From the NCBI GenBank assembly GCA_009777725.1, contig WRLG01000004.1:62001-126000 (forward strand): 64,000 nucleotides of DNA. The letters run 5' to 3'. This DNA is from Oscillospiraceae bacterium (GTDB lineage Bacteria > Bacillota > Clostridia > Oscillospirales > Ruminococcaceae). The translations under genes and the position numbers were made by a program. The notes beneath the pieces are model-generated. The model was given only the letters and a program-made list of their open reading frames with translations. It had not been told where the DNA came from and searched no databases. Shown in pieces: positions 16,391 through 52,485 of this stretch (position 1 is its first letter; every line of letters begins with the position of its first letter).

Positions 16391-16489
16391 CGTGCGTGGG
16401 AGCAAGAGCGGGGAGCTGGAGGCTAGGGCTTTTATAAAACTCAGATTTCAGCTTTCAAGACTTAAGCCTCAATTAACAGGAGGGTAATT

Positions 16490-16777
16490 ATGAGCAGAAG
16501 CGTAAAGAAAGGACCTTTTATACAGGAGGCTCTTTTAAAAAGAATTATCGCCATGAATGAAGCGGGCGAAAAGAAAGTTCTTAAAACATGGAGCAGGGCT
16601 TCTACCATATTCCCGGATTTTGTCGGGCATACGGTCGCCGTTCATGATGGCAGAAAGCATGTTCCCGTTTATGTTACCGAGGATATGGTAGGTCACAAAT
16701 TCGGCGAATTTGCTCCGACGAGGACCTACAAGGGTCACGCGGGGTCAAAAACCTCCAACACGGCAAAAGGCAGGTAG
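16490..16777 (+). CDS. rpsS: 30S ribosomal protein S19
   Basis: S19 (95 aa) binds 16S rRNA in the 30S head with S13. [34 protein letters not shown] and [12 protein letters not shown] match the family throughout. AGGAGGG lies upstream of the ATG. Confidence 0.98.
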
Positions 16778-16783
16778 GCAGTA

Positions 16784-16814
16784 CAGTTAACGGTTAGCAT
16801 TGACTAATGTTAAC
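16784..16814. repeat. Degenerate GTTAAC repeat between rpsS and rplV
   Basis: A short stretch with AGTTAACGGTTAGC and an inverted ATGTTAACT looks like a decayed copy of the AT-rich palindromic element. Confidence 0.45.
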
Positions 16815-16833
16815 TCCGAAAGGAATGAAATAA

Positions 16834-17169
16834 ATGGAAGCCAGAGCATATTTGAAAAATACTCGGATTGCGCCAAGAAAGGTTCAGATTGTTCTTGACC
16901 TTATCAGAGGTAAGGATATTGAAAACGCAACGGCGATTTTAAAGCATACGCCTAAAGCCGCCTGCGAGCATTTATTAAAGCTTTTAAACTCAGCCGTGGC
17001 AAACGCGGAGCATAATCACGGAATGGACAGGGATTTCCTTTATGTTTCGGAATGTTTTGTCAGCCCCGGACCGATTATGAAAAGGATTATGCCAAGGGCG
17101 CACGGCAGAGCTTTCCGCATCAACAAGAGAACTTCTAATGTTACGCTTGTTGTCAGTGAAAAATTGTAA
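16834..17169 (+). CDS. rplV: 50S ribosomal protein L22
   Basis: L22 (111 aa) forms part of the exit-tunnel constriction. [20 protein letters not shown], the NAVANAEHN-like segment and [20 protein letters not shown] are conserved. It lies in the standard place between rpsS and rpsC. Confidence 0.98.
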
Positions 17170-17238
17170 CGCAATCAAGTGCAGGCGGGGCGTGGAACAA
17201 ATACGGCGCGGACTTGCAGGAAAGGGTGGTTATTTTTA

Positions 17239-18096
17239 ATGGGACAAAAGGTTAATCCGCACGGCTTACGGGTTGGAATTATTAAAGATTGGGATTCGCG
17301 TTGGTTTGCTAATAAGGCGACCTTCGGAGACACCTTGGTTGAAGATTACAACATCCGCGAGCTTATTAAAAAAGAGCTTTATGCGGCGGGGATTCCCCGT
17401 ATAGAAATTGAGAGGTTTGCCGATAAGGTTAGAGTTCATATTCATTGCGCGAAGCCCGGTATCGTTATCGGTCGCGGCGGCGAGAATGTTGAAAAGGTGC
17501 GTTTGAAGGTCGAGAAGATGATAAGTAAGACGGTGTTAATCAACATCGTTGAGGTAAAATCACCCGATTTAAGCGCGCAAATTGTAGCCGAAAGCATTGC
17601 CGCTCAGCTTGAAAACAGAGCTTCTTTCAGACGCGCGATGAAGCAAGCAATCGGCAGAGCGATGAAATTGGGCGCAAAGGGTATTAAAACCAGAGTTTCG
17701 GGTCGCTTGGGCGGTGCTGAAATTGCACGCTCCGAGAGCTATAATGAGGGAACAATTCCTCTTCAGACGATTCGCGCGGACATAGATTACGGCACTGCGG
17801 AAGCCCACACGACCTACGGACGCTTAGGCGTTAAGGTTTGGATTTATAAAGGCGAGGTTCTCAAAGGCGATGTTGACGCGGCTAAGGCGCGCGCGGCATT
17901 ATCCGCGGCAGGCACTGAAAAGCCGGAAAGAAAAAAACGCCCCGATAACAGGAACAGGGGCGGCGGCGACAGACCGCGCAACAATTACGGCGGCGGCAGA
18001 GGCGGCGGAGGCTTTAACAACAGAGACGGCGGAAGAACAGGCTCTTCAAATAATAACGCCGGAAGAGGAGGAGGTTCGTCTAATGCTACTTCCTAA
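17239..18096 (+). CDS. rpsC: 30S ribosomal protein S3 with Gly/Arg/Asn-rich tail
   Basis: S3 (285 aa) lines the mRNA entry tunnel. [20 protein letters not shown], the KH-domain [11 protein letters not shown] and the C-terminal [15 protein letters not shown] are standard. The start is the ATG at 17239 behind AAGGGTGG; the frame opens 60 bases earlier. The unusual part is residues about 228-285, a tail rich in Gly, Arg and Asn with several RGG and GRGGG units, about 60 residues beyond the usual length. The tail's last codons also hold the AGGAGG Shine-Dalgarno of rplP, and the two genes overlap by 14 bp. Confidence 0.97.
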
Positions 18097-43055: not shown

Positions 43056-44249
43056 ATGACAAATAAAAAAGGAAGATTCGGAAATTACGGGGGGCAGTAT
43101 ATACCCGAAACGCTGATGGCGGCGGTGAATGAGCTTGAAAAGGCGTATCTGCATTTTAAGGACGATGCGGGCTTTAAAAGTGAGCTGGATTACCTGCTTA
43201 AAAATTACGCGGGCAGACCGTCAATTTTATATTACGCCGAAAAGATGACAAAGGATTTGGGCGGCGCGAAAATATATTTAAAGCGCGAGGATTTAAACCA
43301 TACGGGCTCGCATAAAATTAACAATGTTTTAGGACAAACCCTGCTTGCCAAAAAGATGGGCAAAACAAGGGTAATCGCCGAAACGGGCGCAGGGCAACAT
43401 GGCGTTGCTACGGCTACAGCCGCCGCTTTGATGGACATGAAGTGCGAGATTTTCATGGGTCGTGAAGATACCGAGCGGCAGGCTTTGAACGTCTACAGAA
43501 TGAAGCTTCTGGGCGCGGAGGTTCATGCCGTGACAAGTGGCACGCAAACGCTCAAAGATGCGGTAAACGAAACCATGCGCGAATGGGTTTCGCGCATTGC
43601 GGATACGCATTATGTGTTAGGCTCCGTTATGGGTCCTCACCCGTTTCCCGTGATAGTTCGTGATTTTCATAAAATAATTGGTGAAGAAATTAGGGAGCAG
43701 CTTAGGGCGGCTGAGGGCAGGACCCCCGATGTGGTCGCGGCTTGCGTTGGCGGGGGGAGTAATGCTATGGGGGCGTTTTATGATTTTATAGATGATGAAA
43801 ATGTGCGGCTTGTCGGCTGTGAAGCGGCGGGGCTGGGCGTTGACAACCCTAAAAATGCCGCAACGATAGCCAACGGCTCGGTCGGCATTTTCCACGGCAT
43901 GAAATCATATTTCTGCCAAGATGAATACGGGCAGATTGCGCCCGTTTATTCTATTTCGGCAGGGCTTGATTACCCCGGCATAGGTCCCGAACACGCACAT
44001 CTTTCAGATTTGGGGCGCGCCGAATATGTACCCGTGACAGATGCGGAGGCGGTTGAAGCGTTTGAATATTTGGCGCGGACGGAGGGCATTATCCCCGCCA
44101 TTGAAAGCGCGCACGCCGTCAGCTTCGCGCTCAAAGCCGCTCCCTTGATGAGTAAAAAGCAAATCATGGTCGTAACCCTTTCGGGCAGAGGGGATAAGGA
44201 CGTAGCGGCAATCGCGCGTTATACGCGGGGGTTGAGGATTGAGGAATAA
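43056..44249 (+). CDS. trpB: Tryptophan synthase beta chain (lone)
   Basis: PLP enzyme that joins indole and serine. The 397-aa protein is of the TrpB1 type: [14 protein letters not shown], the PLP lysine K87 in [19 protein letters not shown], and the phosphate loop [10 protein letters not shown]. The ATG follows AGAAAGGAAA. No trpA or other trp gene is beside it. Either the rest of the pathway is elsewhere, or this enzyme salvages free indole. It has its own strong promoter. Confidence 0.96.
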
Positions 44250-47538: not shown

Positions 47539-49719
47539 TTAAAAAAGCCCGAACAGTTTAATGTTAATATTAAATAGATTTGCGGTTAAATTAAGCGGAA
47601 TATCTCTGTCTAAATCATCATCATAATATTCGCGCTTTTTTTCTATGTAGTTAACTATTTTCTTTTCTTTCAGCATTATCGGTTCGTAGCTTGCGTTTTT
47701 TTGATATTGGTTTATCCCTTGCTTTTGGTGTGCTGAAAGGTTAGTTTTGAGCTCATCGGGGAGAATAATCCTGTAATATAAGTCGGGAGTGGCTGACTTG
47801 TATCCGTTAAATATGTCATTCATATCTTTGCGAAGCTCTGTTATGTACTTTGTTTTCAACGAACCTTTAACTTTAATCGAAATAGTCCTGTCATTTTCAA
47901 TAACAGTTGCTATCGTATCTTCGCCGTATTTTAAAACAACGCCGCTTCGCCAGACTTTGCCTTGTTCAATCTCTTTATGCCGCCTTGTAATCAATCGGCA
48001 GACCGTATTCGGCGGGAGCGGGCTTTCGGCTTTGTATTCCATAAGCAGGCTGTCGTTAGGGTCAAAGTCCGGCATTTCTTCGGGCGGGGGTCTGTCCTTT
48101 TTAAGCAAGTGGGGAATGATAATTTTGGTCTCGGTTTGAGCATATGCAAGCTCAAATTTGACCATAAGTTTAAAGATATACTGAAAGTGCTCTACGGTAT
48201 AATCTTTGCTGTCACTCTTAAAAATTGCTTCATAATCGTTGAGAGAAACCGTATGTTTGCCCAAAGCAATCACTTTATAAATTCCTTTAGAAAGCCAGCT
48301 TGGGTTGATAACGAGAGAATCAAATTCCCCCATATCCTTATACCAAAGGCAAATCCCCAAAGGGTTAAGATTTATGAGTGCATTTTCGCTGTCCTCCGCT
48401 TCGTAATCAAGGGCTATTTGGTTAAAAATTTCTCTTGATATATAATGTTTCCCATCTGCAAATAATTCGTTGATACGGTTTTTAATATTATAATAGCTTT
48501 TCGGGGTTTTAAAATTCCACATGGGGTTGCCGCGTATGTATTCTTCAAGGTCGGATTTAAACTCTTCATACCCTTTATTGTCTTTTTCAATTGAAAATTC
48601 GACTAACTTTATGGATATTTCTTTATAGTTAGCTTGCAAATCATAAATAGGTATATCAAGTATATGATTATCCCGCCTGTTAACAAAAATCCAAACAGGA
48701 GCGTTACCGCCGTAATCTTTTACGTGGTTAAGCCAATATTCAAGGTCATTCCGCCGCTCGGAACGCCCGTCATAAACTATAATGTATACGCATTTGGGCG
48801 AAAGAAAGCAACGATGAGCAGAGTGCAAAATAACATCGCCGCCGAAATCCCAAATATGAGCGTTGATAAATGAATCGCCGCTTTTTATTTTCCAAATATT
48901 GGTGTTAACCTCAATAGTGCTTTCATCAGATTTAGTCATATATGGTTCTAATCCAATTAGGCGATTAGCAAGGCAGGTTTTTCCTGCGCCTCTTTCGCCG
49001 AGAATAATAACCCTTGCTTCGTCTAAGTTTTTAATGCCCTTTAGTACTTCGGCTAAATGTGCATTTGTGACGGATATAGGAACATCAAATTTAGTTATAG
49101 ATAAAATAGCTTCTGCATCATTTTTGCTAATCATAAAATTATTATCAACAACTCTTTTGAGTAAATCAGCCCAATGGTTGCCGTTCAGTTTAATAATTAT
49201 TTCTAAGAAATTTGAAAATATACTATACCAATCACTTGTCTCTTTGGCATATCTCACAAAATCATTATCATCGTTCAATATTTGTTTCGCATCGTTTAAA
49301 ACGAGGTCGAGGGGGAGGGTGAAGTCGAGGGTGAGGTAGAGGACGCGGTCGAGGTCGAGGTCGCGGGCGCGGGCGAGGGCGAGGGCGAGGATGCGGGCGT
49401 GGGCATGGTCGAGGGCGAGGGCGATGTCGCAGTCGAAGGCGAGGTCGCGGGCGAAGGCGAGGTCGAGGGCGCGGGCGAAGACGAGGGCTTTAGGGGTAGA
49501 AGAAAAAAATATTACATCATTAATCATTAAAGAAATCAACAGATAATTTAAATAGCCTATTTTTTCTTTATTAACTATTTTAATAAACCCTTCGCTAAAA
49601 CACGGAATATTTCTGAAAGATAAAACAGTCATAAATTTACCCAATTGCTCATTGTCCATTTTCTCTAATATTTCACGCAATTCTTTTTCATAATCATCTC
49701 TATTTAACAACCTAACCAA
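47539..49719 (-). CDS. Roc-COR GTPase-like protein with dipeptide-repeat N-terminal region
   Basis: A 726-aa ROCO-type protein. The Roc GTPase domain (about 234-385) has Walker A GERGAGKTC (241-249), G3 WDFGGD (290-295) and G4 VNRRD, a variant of NKxD. It is followed by a COR domain with VINPSWLSKGIYKVI. The N-terminal 75 residues are helical, and residues about 82-140 form an unusual stretch in which every second residue is Leu, Arg or Phe and the others are mostly Ala or Asp. It is encoded by a GC-rich hexamer repeat. No leucine-rich repeats or kinase domain follow. Its role is unknown; bacterial ROCO proteins are poorly studied, and some P-loop relatives act in defence. Between it and sigK lies a GTAGGGG repeat. 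Confidence 0.82.
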   Translation of the reverse strand: MVRLLNRDDYEKELREILEKMDNEQLGKFMTVLSFRNIPCFSEGFIKIVNKEKIGYLNYLLISLMINDVIFFSSTPKALVFARALDLAFARDLAFDCDIALALDHAHARILALALARARDLDLDRVLYLTLDFTLPLDLVLNDAKQILNDDNDFVRYAKETSDWYSIFSNFLEIIIKLNGNHWADLLKRVVDNNFMISKNDAEAILSITKFDVPISVTNAHLAEVLKGIKNLDEARVIILGERGAGKTCLANRLIGLEPYMTKSDESTIEVNTNIWKIKSGDSFINAHIWDFGGDVILHSAHRCFLSPKCVYIIVYDGRSERRNDLEYWLNHVKDYGGNAPVWIFVNRRDNHILDIPIYDLQANYKEISIKLVEFSIEKDNKGYEEFKSDLEEYIRGNPMWNFKTPKSYYNIKNRINELFADGKHYISREIFNQIALDYEAEDSENALINLNPLGICLWYKDMGEFDSLVINPSWLSKGIYKVIALGKHTVSLNDYEAIFKSDSKDYTVEHFQYIFKLMVKFELAYAQTETKIIIPHLLKKDRPPPEEMPDFDPNDSLLMEYKAESPLPPNTVCRLITRRHKEIEQGKVWRSGVVLKYGEDTIATVIENDRTISIKVKGSLKTKYITELRKDMNDIFNGYKSATPDLYYRIILPDELKTNLSAHQKQGINQYQKNASYEPIMLKEKKIVNYIEKKREYYDDDLDRDIPLNLTANLFNINIKLFGLF
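49305..49490. repeat. Degenerate GC-rich hexanucleotide repeat in the Roc-COR gene
   Basis: About 30 units of GAGGGC / GAGGTC / GCGGGC type follow each other (plus strand). Each unit is six bases, so changes in copy number keep the reading frame. The local base composition is far more GC-rich than the surrounding gene. Confidence 0.88.
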
Positions 49720-50004: not shown

Positions 50005-50442
50005 ATGTTCACCTCGTTAATAGATTTAGCACTTCAAAACCTGTTATTTTTCGCACTGCACCTTGAAAACAACGGCGCATTCCCCAAGCCGCTTTCCGCC
50101 GAAGCCGAAGCCGAATGTTTCAGCAAAATGGCGCAGGGAGATACCGGCGCGCGCAACAAGCTTATCGAGCACAATCTGCGGCTTGTAGCACATATAATCA
50201 AGAAATACTACTCCGCCGCAAACGAGCAGGACGACCTTATATCAATAGGCACAATAGGGCTCATTAAGGCGGTATCGTCCTACAGCCCGGAAAAAAAGAC
50301 TAAGTTTGCGACTTATGCGTCGAGGTGTATAGAAAATGAAGTCCTAATGCACTTCCGCTCCCTAAAAAAAACCGCGGGAGATGTTTATTTTGACGCGCCT
50401 GTGGATACGGATAAGGATGGCAACCAACTAACCCTTCAATGA
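50005..50442 (+). CDS. sigK: Pro-sigma-K, N-terminal part; gene split by a skin-like prophage
   Basis: Encodes the first 145 residues of the late mother-cell sporulation sigma factor. The start MFTSLIDLALQNLLFFALHL is the hydrophobic pro-sequence removed during activation; PKPLS and the sigma region 2 segment IEHNLRLVAHIIKKYYSA, then DLISIGTIGLIKAVSSY and ASRCIENEVLMHFRSLKKT follow. The frame ends with PVDTDKDGNQLTLQ-stop, where intact SigK continues with an Ile-Asp-Val type segment and regions 3 and 4. GGAGATGGG lies before the ATG at 50005. A CATAGAAT at 49969 could be a sigma-E type -10 (weak). As it stands the gene cannot make sigma-K without excision of the downstream DNA. Confidence 0.93.
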   Translation: MFTSLIDLALQNLLFFALHLENNGAFPKPLSAEAEAECFSKMAQGDTGARNKLIEHNLRLVAHIIKKYYSAANEQDDLISIGTIGLIKAVSSYSPEKKTKFATYASRCIENEVLMHFRSLKKTAGDVYFDAPVDTDKDGNQLTLQ

Positions 50443-50452
50443 TACATATACT
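50425..50452. other. Probable left attachment junction of the sigK element
   Basis: Similarity to sigma-K ends within CTAACCCTTCAATGA. From here the sequence no longer codes for sigma-K and eight bases separate its stop codon from the recombinase stop codon. The exact core repeat cannot be fixed without the right end. Confidence 0.6.
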
Positions 50453-51995
50453 AAATCAAAAACAAAACAGATATTTCCAAGTCCGAGTTATTATCGGATT
50501 TACTTAGCTTTTCTGTCTTAAAATAATCAATTCGGCGGATAATGGATTTCAGCATTTGGTTTTTGATATGTGCGTTTTCGTGTTTGCCGAAATTTTCGAT
50601 AACATTAGCCAATCTGTCAAGCATTTCAGAATCGGATATAATTTCAATACTTGATAGCTCAATCATTTTAAGCTGATTTTTTATATCCGAGATTTTATCC
50701 TTAATCAGCTTGGAACGCTCCAGAAAGGTGTTATTATCATAAATTCCCTGTTCAAGCAAATCATAAAGCTTGCTTTGTTGCTTTTCAAGCTTGGATAATT
50801 CCGCCTTAATTATTTTTTCGGTGTTAGGAATATTTGATTGTTTTTGCGGGGATTGAGCCATAACTTTTAAGCTTTGATAGCATCTTCTTATGTGGAGCAT
50901 AACCAGTTCGTCAACCGCTTCAATGCGGCTGCTGACTATGCTTCCCCTGCACTCAAAGCTTCGGCAATGTATATGCTCGTAGCTTCGTAGCCGCGCGCCT
51001 TTCTTATCTTTGGCATGATGTATTTTTCTTGTCATGGCGCATCCGCAATGATTGCAGAATAATAAGCCTTGGTAATAGTTCTTTAATTCCGCGCTGTGCT
51101 TATGCTTGGAATTGTGAGGTGAATTTTCAAATTTATACTGCACCTTATAAAAATCCTCTTTGGATATTATCCGCTCATGTATTCCTTGAAAAAGCTCGTC
51201 CTCCAACCCTTTTGAACGCCACCTCAGCTGCCCGGTATAAACAGGATTTTGAAGCAAGGCTTTTACGGTTTCTGCCTGCCAAGCCTGCCCCCTCTGCGTT
51301 TTGATTCCCAACCGATTCAGCTTTGCGGCAATCAGAGAACAGCCCTTGTCGTCATTCAAATAGGTATCATATATAAGCCTTACAATTTCAGCCTCCTCCG
51401 GCTCAATCTCCAGTGTATGAACCTTGGAAGAGGGGCTTATTTTTTTATAGCCATACGGCGGATACGTCCCGATATAATTGCCCTCTTTAACGGCGGCGAG
51501 CCGCCCGGCGTTCATTCTACGCTTAATCGTCTTATACTCACGGCGTGACATAAACAGAGAGAACTCGAAATATTCCTCATCAAACTCGTTATTGGGGTCA
51601 TATGTTTTGGTTGGCGTTACAATTTTGGTATTGCTGTCTCTGAAAGCCTGTGCAACAAGCCCTTGGTCGATTGTATCACCGCGCGCAAGCCTCTCGACCT
51701 CCATAACAATCACGCCGTCACATTTGCCCTCACTGACCTTTGTGAGAAGCCTTTGCATTTGCGGTCTGGCGGCTATGCTCTCGCCCGATACGATTTCACG
51801 GTAGATTTCGCCGATAGCTAATTTTTGTTTTTTTGCCAAATCGCGGAGGGTATTTTCATGCCGCGTTAAGGTTTCACCCTCGCCGCGCGCCTCCGCTTCA
51901 AGGTCGGCGCGGGATTTACGTAGGTATATATCGTATATGGTATTTCCCTCCTCATAATCTCCTAACCATTTGCAAATATTTATCGTTTTTATCAT
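50451..51995 (-). CDS. Large serine recombinase (SpoIVCA-like sigK element excisionase)
   Basis: Site-specific recombinase of about 500-515 aa. The N-terminal resolvase domain has YDIYLRKSRADLEAEA, where the Ser in RKSRAD is the nucleophile, then VMEVERLARGDTIDQG and EEYFEFSLFMSRREYK. A recombinase domain (PPYGYKKI, then RLGIKTQRGQAW) and a zinc ribbon (CNHCGCAMTRKI) with a coiled coil follow. By position it should rejoin sigK during sporulation. The start is unclear: a strong GAGGAGGG lies upstream of an ATA codon at 51936-51938 giving the family-like N-terminus, while the nearest in-frame ATG at 51995 has no ribosome-binding site and overlaps the GNAT gene. Confidence 0.92.
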   Translation of the reverse strand: MIKTINICKWLGDYEEGNTIYDIYLRKSRADLEAEARGEGETLTRHENTLRDLAKKQKLAIGEIYREIVSGESIAARPQMQRLLTKVSEGKCDGVIVMEVERLARGDTIDQGLVAQAFRDSNTKIVTPTKTYDPNNEFDEEYFEFSLFMSRREYKTIKRRMNAGRLAAVKEGNYIGTYPPYGYKKISPSSKVHTLEIEPEEAEIVRLIYDTYLNDDKGCSLIAAKLNRLGIKTQRGQAWQAETVKALLQNPVYTGQLRWRSKGLEDELFQGIHERIISKEDFYKVQYKFENSPHNSKHKHSAELKNYYQGLLFCNHCGCAMTRKIHHAKDKKGARLRSYEHIHCRSFECRGSIVSSRIEAVDELVMLHIRRCYQSLKVMAQSPQKQSNIPNTEKIIKAELSKLEKQQSKLYDLLEQGIYDNNTFLERSKLIKDKISDIKNQLKMIELSSIEIISDSEMLDRLANVIENFGKHENAHIKNQMLKSIIRRIDYFKTEKLSKSDNNSDLEISVLFLI

Positions 51996-52485
51996 ATTGC
52001 AAAGGCTCAAACCCATTTTTACGGTAGAAAGAAACAACCTTATCAATCTCTAAACATTCTAACATTACAAATCTGCCTCCGATTATATTTTTAGCGGAGT
52101 AAACAGTATCAAGGCAAAGATTGAAAAGTTCATCACCGTTAATTTCGGAAGCTGTTAATAAATCTTTCCCGAATTGACCTATGAGAATTATTCCGACCGC
52201 TCTGACATCTTTAGAAAATCCGTCAATATTCTTCGCCTTGCTCTTTGAAACAGTCTCTGAAAATGGCAATGCGTTAAGGGTTAGCGTAAAGTATCCTAAA
52301 AGCGTTTCGTTATCATCGAAAACTAAGTATGTACGCCCCTTATCACGGCGTTCAAAATCAAAAGCCTTTTGTTTAAGAAACAACTCAACATCTTTATCTT
52401 TGCAAACAAAGGTGTCGATGGTTTTAATTATTGATTCGAGCTGTCCTTCCTTGATGATTTCTCCGAGAGGCGTTGCAAAAAGCAT
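51952..52485 (-). CDS. GNAT-like acetyltransferase, possible toxin
   Basis: A 177-aa protein of the GNAT type: TYLVFDDNETLLGYFTLTL and the later VRAVGIILIGQFGKDL (acetyl-CoA loop region) and FVMLECLEIDKVVSFYRKNGFEPL. The Glu/Cys and Tyr-Arg-Lys-Asn-Gly-Phe end are characteristic. A small gene overlaps its 5' end on the same strand, an arrangement like acetyltransferase toxin-antitoxin pairs. Toxin activity is inference. It is within the prophage cargo, next to the recombinase. Confidence 0.75.
   Translation of the reverse strand: MLFATPLGEIIKEGQLESIIKTIDTFVCKDKDVELFLKQKAFDFERRDKGRTYLVFDDNETLLGYFTLTLNALPFSETVSKSKAKNIDGFSKDVRAVGIILIGQFGKDLLTASEINGDELFNLCLDTVYSAKNIIGGRFVMLECLEIDKVVSFYRKNGFEPLQYDKNDKYLQMVRRL

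What the first reader, a model, noticed from the sequence alone, without database searches (positions are those of the whole stretch)
49305..49490. Hexanucleotide repeat encodes a strict dipeptide pattern in a Roc-COR protein
About 60 residues alternate between Ala/Asp and Leu/Arg/Phe. The repeat unit is six bases so copy-number change keeps the frame, and the GC content is much higher than in the rest of the gene. Repeats that can expand or contract inside a GTPase-like signalling protein suggest rapid variation of an interaction surface. The neighbouring position, next to a prophage, suits a defence or competition role.
Basis: partly seen in the sequence, partly recalled or inferred. Interest (0 to 1): 0.65.

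Follow-up and report, generated by a model that had tools for sequence, protein, structure and literature searches.

The report
Hypervariable NNC-codon array in Roco GTPase
A bacterial signalling GTPase of the Parkinson's-kinase (Roco) family carries, where such proteins usually have leucine-rich repeats, a fast-changing run of about 60 codons that all end in C; the genome's only other Roco gene has a different run at the same spot, and the same kind of run recurs in NLR-like immune proteins of cyanobacteria, so it looks like a variable recognition surface.

Summary
The repeat is real: window 49303-49488 (-), codons 78-139 of a 726-codon Roc-COR (Roco) gene. Its deeper property is that 57 of 58 core codons end in C (21% in the rest of the gene), while codon positions 1 and 2 vary. 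The period-6 pattern (L/R/F)-(A/D) is one form of this.

Genome-wide, a 24-codon NNC run in frame occurs in only two genes: this one and the genome's only other Roc-COR gene. The two arrays sit at the same place, with a homologous C-terminal flank, but the arrays share no sequence. The paralog lies next to McrBC genes.

The same arrays occur just before the NCH2 domain in NACHT (NLR-like) proteins of cyanobacteria (7 of 63 genes, 0 of 60 other ORFs). In one pair the flanks are 82% identical but the arrays 38%. Thirty cyanobacterial Roc-COR genes have none. No template copy supports a diversity-generating retroelement, although the genome has one elsewhere.

Best reading: a slippage-grown, stop-proof hypervariable segment in the sensor position of conflict-type NTPases. 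Function is inferred. No close strain was available, so length polymorphism at this locus is untested. Structure models were too poor to use.

The parts
47539..49719 (-). Roc-COR (Roco-type) GTPase gene, 726 aa, TTG start; a TTG three codons further in (49710) has better Shine-Dalgarno spacing
49489..49719 (-). N-terminal segment before the array (residues 1-77); matches the paralog's N-terminus only weakly (z = 2.2)
49303..49488 (-). NNC-codon array, residues 78-139, hexamer YNC-GMC encoding (L/R/F/H..)-(A/D..)
49030..49302 (-). segment between array and Roc (residues 140-230), homologous to the same segment of the paralog (z = 6.0, none of 1000 shuffles reached the score)
48670..49014 (-). 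Roc GTPase domain (residues 236-350), P-loop GERGAGKT
48103..48504 (-). COR-A domain (residues 406-539)
47698..48048 (-). COR-B domain (residues 558-674)

Best explanation
The array is a hypervariable segment in the N-terminal sensor position of a conflict-type (probably anti-phage or self/non-self) Roco GTPase. It grows and shrinks by slippage or recombination in multiples of 3 bp. Because every codon ends in C, no change at codon positions 1-2 can make a stop codon, so residues can be reshuffled freely among 15 amino acids. Selection for residue change then leaves variation at positions 1-2 and almost none at position 3. The array would form, probably as helix, a variable protein-binding surface where other Roco proteins carry LRRs; binding would switch the Roc-COR dimer through its GTPase cycle. 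Shown here: the array and its codon signature, the second array at the same site of the paralog, recurrence in NACHT-NCH2 proteins, and faster change than the flanks. Inferred: slippage, diversifying selection, ligand binding, defence role and helical form.
For: Only the two Roc-COR genes of this genome have in-frame NNC arrays, and COR is otherwise absent at the curated cut-off from 321 class and 398 phylum genomes. The arrays occupy the same place in homologous surroundings but are unrelated in sequence. The same kind of array, with third-position C 0.75-1.00 against 0.12-0.24 in the rest of the gene (0.50, with T fixed at the other phase, in L301), lies before NCH2 in cyanobacterial NACHT proteins. 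Orthologues with 82% identical flanks have divergent arrays. In 10 of 11 arrays the third codon position is the least variable by hexamer phase (about 1e-4 if positions were exchangeable, arrays not strictly independent), the reverse of purifying selection. The paralog is beside McrBC and a DNA methyltransferase, and one array-bearing NACHT gene adjoins a type I restriction subunit. Brown-algal ROCO LRRs are reported to be under diversifying selection as candidate immune receptors (PMC11378527), and bacterial STAND/NACHT proteins are reported to carry variable C-terminal sensors (PMC10907252).
Against: No strain-level variation was seen at this locus, because no close genome holds the gene. 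No known defence family matches either Roc-COR. No effector domain was found. Thirty cyanobacterial Roc-COR genes have no such array, so it is not a general Roco feature. In the window array itself, nonsynonymous types outnumber synonymous ones by about 12 to 1 by minimal count, which is only marginally significant alone. Structure models are too poor to show a fold.
Confidence: 0.5

Rival explanations
1. A length-tolerant structural element: a helix or spacer between an N-terminal domain and Roc, in which composition rather than exact sequence matters. Variation is tolerated, not selected.
For: Low-confidence models give helix throughout. A, L, R and D favour helix. Cyanobacterial arrays keep a large/small alternation (L,R,F,Y / A,D,S,T,N) even when decayed.
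Against: The paralog's array has a different make-up (A, Y, H, V, N, S, P, C). Relaxed constraint would let third positions drift toward the gene's own 21% C; they have not.
Confidence: 0.27
2. A neutral, young microsatellite that happened to stay in frame; no function.
For: Hexamer periodicity. Simple repeats of similar form occur in many unrelated ORFs in the collections.
Against: Of all genes in the genome, the two COR genes alone have in-frame NNC arrays, at the same site. The same class recurs before NCH2 in NACHT genes of several cyanobacterial genera. Variation falls on coding-relevant positions.
Confidence: 0.13
3. A diversity-generating retroelement (DGR) target: NNC codons result from mutagenesis of AAC template codons.
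For: NNC with a fixed third base is the classic outcome of AAY templates (general knowledge). A DGR with an RT (YMDD, SQ motif) and FGE-like targets is present in this genome.
Against: A template would have to keep the third-position C's, and the whole-genome scan shows no such stretch apart from the two arrays and two unrelated linkers. A-tolerant matching to the DGR locus and 483 kb finds nothing above background. Second-base choices differ sharply between the two codon phases (T/G against C/A), unlike random A mutation.
Confidence: 0.03
4. Assembly artefact or contaminating GC-rich DNA in a draft genome.
For: The genome is in 49 contigs, and array GC is 72-74% against 36% in the gene.
Against: The array lies inside one open frame well within a 137-kb contig. 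A second array exists in another contig. Complete cyanobacterial plasmids show the same.
Confidence: 0.02

Closest known systems
Prokaryotic Roco (LRR-Roc-COR) proteins, e.g. Chlorobium tepidum Roco
   Same: Roc, COR-A and COR-B in order; P-loop and WDFGG motifs; a variable segment N-terminal to Roc
   Different: No LRR found; an NNC array within a segment without any Pfam match instead. A 2019 review says all prokaryotic Roco proteins known then had the LRR arrangement (PMC6337361)
NACHT-NCH2 (PF22727) NLR-like proteins of cyanobacteria
   Same: The same class of NNC, period-6 array in a multi-domain P-loop signalling protein, next to a helical domain
   Different: ATPase of the STAND class with the array C-terminal, before NCH2; no detectable NCH2 homology in the window protein
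DGR-diversified STAND/NACHT sensors (PMC10907252)
   Same: Variation confined to codon positions 1-2 in a putative sensor, so no stop codons arise
   Different: No template repeat, no linked RT, not a C-type-lectin/FGE domain; tandem-repeat structure
ROCO candidate immune receptors of brown algae (PMC11378527)
   Same: Roco GTPase with a repeat region thought to diversify for recognition
   Different: LRR exon shuffling in a eukaryote against codon arrays in a bacterium

Membership tests
Roco (Roc-COR) GTPases | Roc GTPase domain | tested here: met
   PF08477 3e-21, residues 236-350
Roco (Roc-COR) GTPases | COR domain following Roc | tested here: met
   PF16095 1e-19 and PF25497 7.5e-12
Roco (Roc-COR) GTPases | N-terminal LRR of the described prokaryotic group (not required for the family as a whole) | tested here: not met
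   No Pfam match in residues 1-230
Roco (Roc-COR) GTPases | GTP hydrolysis and dimerisation | not testable with these tools
   needs protein
NACHT-NCH2 NLR-like proteins | NACHT NTPase and NCH2 domain | tested here: not met
   No NACHT or NCH2 hit in the window protein; hhalign with an NCH2 alignment gives probability 0.3 per cent
DGR target | adenine-bearing template repeat and reverse transcriptase | tested here: not met
   The RT is on another contig with its own FGE-like targets; no template copy of the arrays
Catalogued anti-phage defence systems | match to a PADLOC model | tested here: not met
   Only weak AAA cross-hits for the window protein and none for the paralog

The most novel reading that the evidence does not exclude
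NNC-codon arrays are a general, template-free diversification device of bacterial immune-type NTPases. They are short in-frame repeats with a locked third base that can slip and mutate without ever producing a stop codon. They arose independently at the sensor site of Roco GTPases and NACHT NLR-like proteins, and in some phage-type proteins.
Probability: 0.3. Interest if true: 0.85.

Novelty: new variant of a known kind. Interest (0 to 1): 0.6.

Why it matters
If true, it adds a slippage-based route beside diversity-generating retroelements and repeat-domain shuffling for making variable recognition surfaces in bacterial innate-immunity proteins. It would put Roco proteins, best known through LRRK2, among candidate bacterial immune receptors. 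The codon signature (long in-frame NNC runs in AT-rich genes) is easy to scan for, so the idea is directly testable across genomes.

Tried and rejected
DGR mutagenesis: rejected. Hidden NCH2 in the segment after the array: a shared NG..W..L motif caught the eye, but hhalign is not significant. AlphaFold of the N-terminus and of the NACHT C-terminus: pLDDT 38 and 42, so no fold search was run. Relatives of the Roc-COR: none in phages or viral contigs; plasmid hits cover only the Roc-COR part. tblastn of the array alone in plasmids gave nothing, perhaps because of low-complexity masking. Near-identical NACHT genes for a strain comparison: none in the plasmid collection. The literature searches found no description of these arrays, but the held library is partial.

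Full report
OBSERVATION. The tandem repeat exists where stated. TRF reports 49302-49488 with periods 6, 18 and 24. It is read in frame in the 726-aa minus-strand ORF 47539-49719, whose Roc, COR-A and COR-B domains pass their Pfam cut-offs. Array codons are CTC/CGC/TTC alternating with GCC/GAC, with single or few ATC, TGC, CAC, GTC, TAC, ACC and CCC codons; nearly all end in C. Array GC is 0.72-0.74 against 0.36, and third-position C 0.98 against 0.21.

HOW UNUSUAL. In 463 ORFs of at least 150 codons from 483 kb of the genome, the richest 40-codon stretch has 39 C-ending codons here and 39 in one other gene; the next is 31. A scan of the whole genome for 24 C's at 3-base spacing finds these two genes and two low-complexity linkers, one Thr-rich and one Gly/Ser-rich, in which C is not the third codon base. 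The other gene is the genome's only other Roc-COR gene. COR-A otherwise reaches its cut-off in none of 321 class and 398 phylum genomes, so both genes look acquired.

THE PARALOG. G000:C12 (L355:8013-10112, minus) has 29% identity over Roc-COR. The segment after its array is homologous to the window's (z = 6.0, no shuffle of 1000 reached it); the segment before is only weakly similar (z = 2.2); the arrays are not similar (z = -0.8). The paralog's array reads AYIPHVADACTASYAYHAVNAV..., again with NNC codons (third-position C 0.87 against 0.19). The gene lies beside McrB-like and McrC genes, with a DNA methyltransferase gene a few kilobases further on.

RELATED ARRAYS. A pattern scan of genomes led to a NACHT protein of Pseudanabaena with the same hexamers in an AT-rich gene, placed just before the NCH2 domain. 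A second cyanobacterium has the same residues with T fixed at one third position, so protein and reading frame matter rather than one DNA word. Among 63 cyanobacterial NACHT ORFs (found by NCH2 or NACHT similarity), 7 have at least 33 of 40 C-ending codons, against 0 of 60 other ORFs in the same loci; one of the 7 (L374) has a different period. Arrays reach about 150 residues in Nostoc N6 and 119 in Nostoc C057. In L297 and L301 the flanks are 82% identical but the middles 38%, and 93 against 99 aa; L301 has perfectly fixed third positions, whereas L297 is partly decayed. Thirty cyanobacterial Roc-COR genes have no such array.

CODON-POSITION SIGNATURE. For 11 arrays, the hexamer-phase average of variability is lowest at the third codon position in 10. 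If positions were exchangeable this would happen with probability about 1e-4 (my arithmetic; arrays are not strictly independent). Purifying selection predicts the reverse, and drift would move third positions toward AT. Young arrays plus selection for residue change explain it best. NNC codons cannot become stops by changes at positions 1-2, the same logic as AAY codons in DGR templates (general knowledge).

DGR TEST. The genome does have a DGR (RT with YMDD and SQ motifs, Avd-like ORF, FGE-like targets) on contig C14. No template-like copy of either array exists in the genome-wide C3 scan or by A-tolerant matching in the sampled sequence, so DGR mutagenesis is rejected.

CONTEXT. The prophage next door starts with a serine recombinase (50451-52046) that abuts a sigma-70 region-2 ORF lacking its end, as in sigK-intervening elements. 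The Roc-COR gene is outside it, so its nearness to the prophage says little. The one same-genus genome searched lacks the gene, so no strain comparison was possible.

MECHANISM. Shown: the array, its codon signature, recurrence at one site in the two Roco genes and before NCH2 in NACHT genes, and faster change than the flanks. Inferred: slippage as the motor, diversifying selection, a helical recognition surface, signal to Roc-COR by GTPase switching, and a conflict role. Low-confidence models are helical but unusable. A described parallel is diversifying selection on LRRs of brown-algal ROCO proteins.

VERDICT. A real feature, better described as an NNC-codon hypervariable array than as a dipeptide repeat, in an LRR-less Roco variant, with an apparently independent counterpart in NLR-like proteins. 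Function remains a hypothesis at about even odds.

Noticed in passing
window 50005-50442 (+) and 50451-52046 (-): A sigma-70 region-2 ORF (SigK-like, without its C-terminal part) is directly followed by a large serine recombinase and a prophage that continues past the window end (tape-measure-like and capsid-like ORFs in L427): a probable skin-like element splitting a sporulation sigma gene. No 3' part of sigK was noticed among the ORFs in the 10.7 kb up to the contig end.
   Followed up: partly
L425:51-3502 (G000:C14, about 21-25 kb): A diversity-generating retroelement: RT with YVRYMDDF and LGNQASQ motifs, an Avd-like ORF and two FGE-like target genes ending GGVRPALWLNL.
   Followed up: partly
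L355:10778-13053 and 16413-17876: McrB-like and McrC genes and a DNA methyltransferase gene beside the second Roc-COR gene.
   Followed up: yes
L151:2892-3692, L163:3143-3775, L174:4496-5368, L153:497-1306 (viral contigs); L114:1199-2659 (Saccharothrix): Proteins of 210-490 aa, most on viral contigs, with the same (L/R)-(A/D) NNC arrays in GC-rich DNA and otherwise almost no known domain; they could be related in function or chance simple repeats.
   Followed up: partly
window 6851, 7333, 7422, 9816, 9919, 13820, 19118, 22924, 26549, 44253: Short tandem heptanucleotide repeats (variants of ATTGTTA, 4.6-5.7 copies) recur through the window, apparently dispersed, like the short tandem repeats known from cyanobacteria.
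   Followed up: no
window 43056-44249 and L355:6755-7525: The window's Roc-COR gene lies a few kilobases from a trpB gene and the paralog lies next to trpA, on different contigs; probably coincidence.
   Followed up: no
L374:955-3387 (Calothrix PCC 7716 plasmid): A NACHT protein with an NNC array of a different period (AITFAKANTFAFANAD...), suggesting that the array type varies while the third-base rule stays.
   Followed up: no
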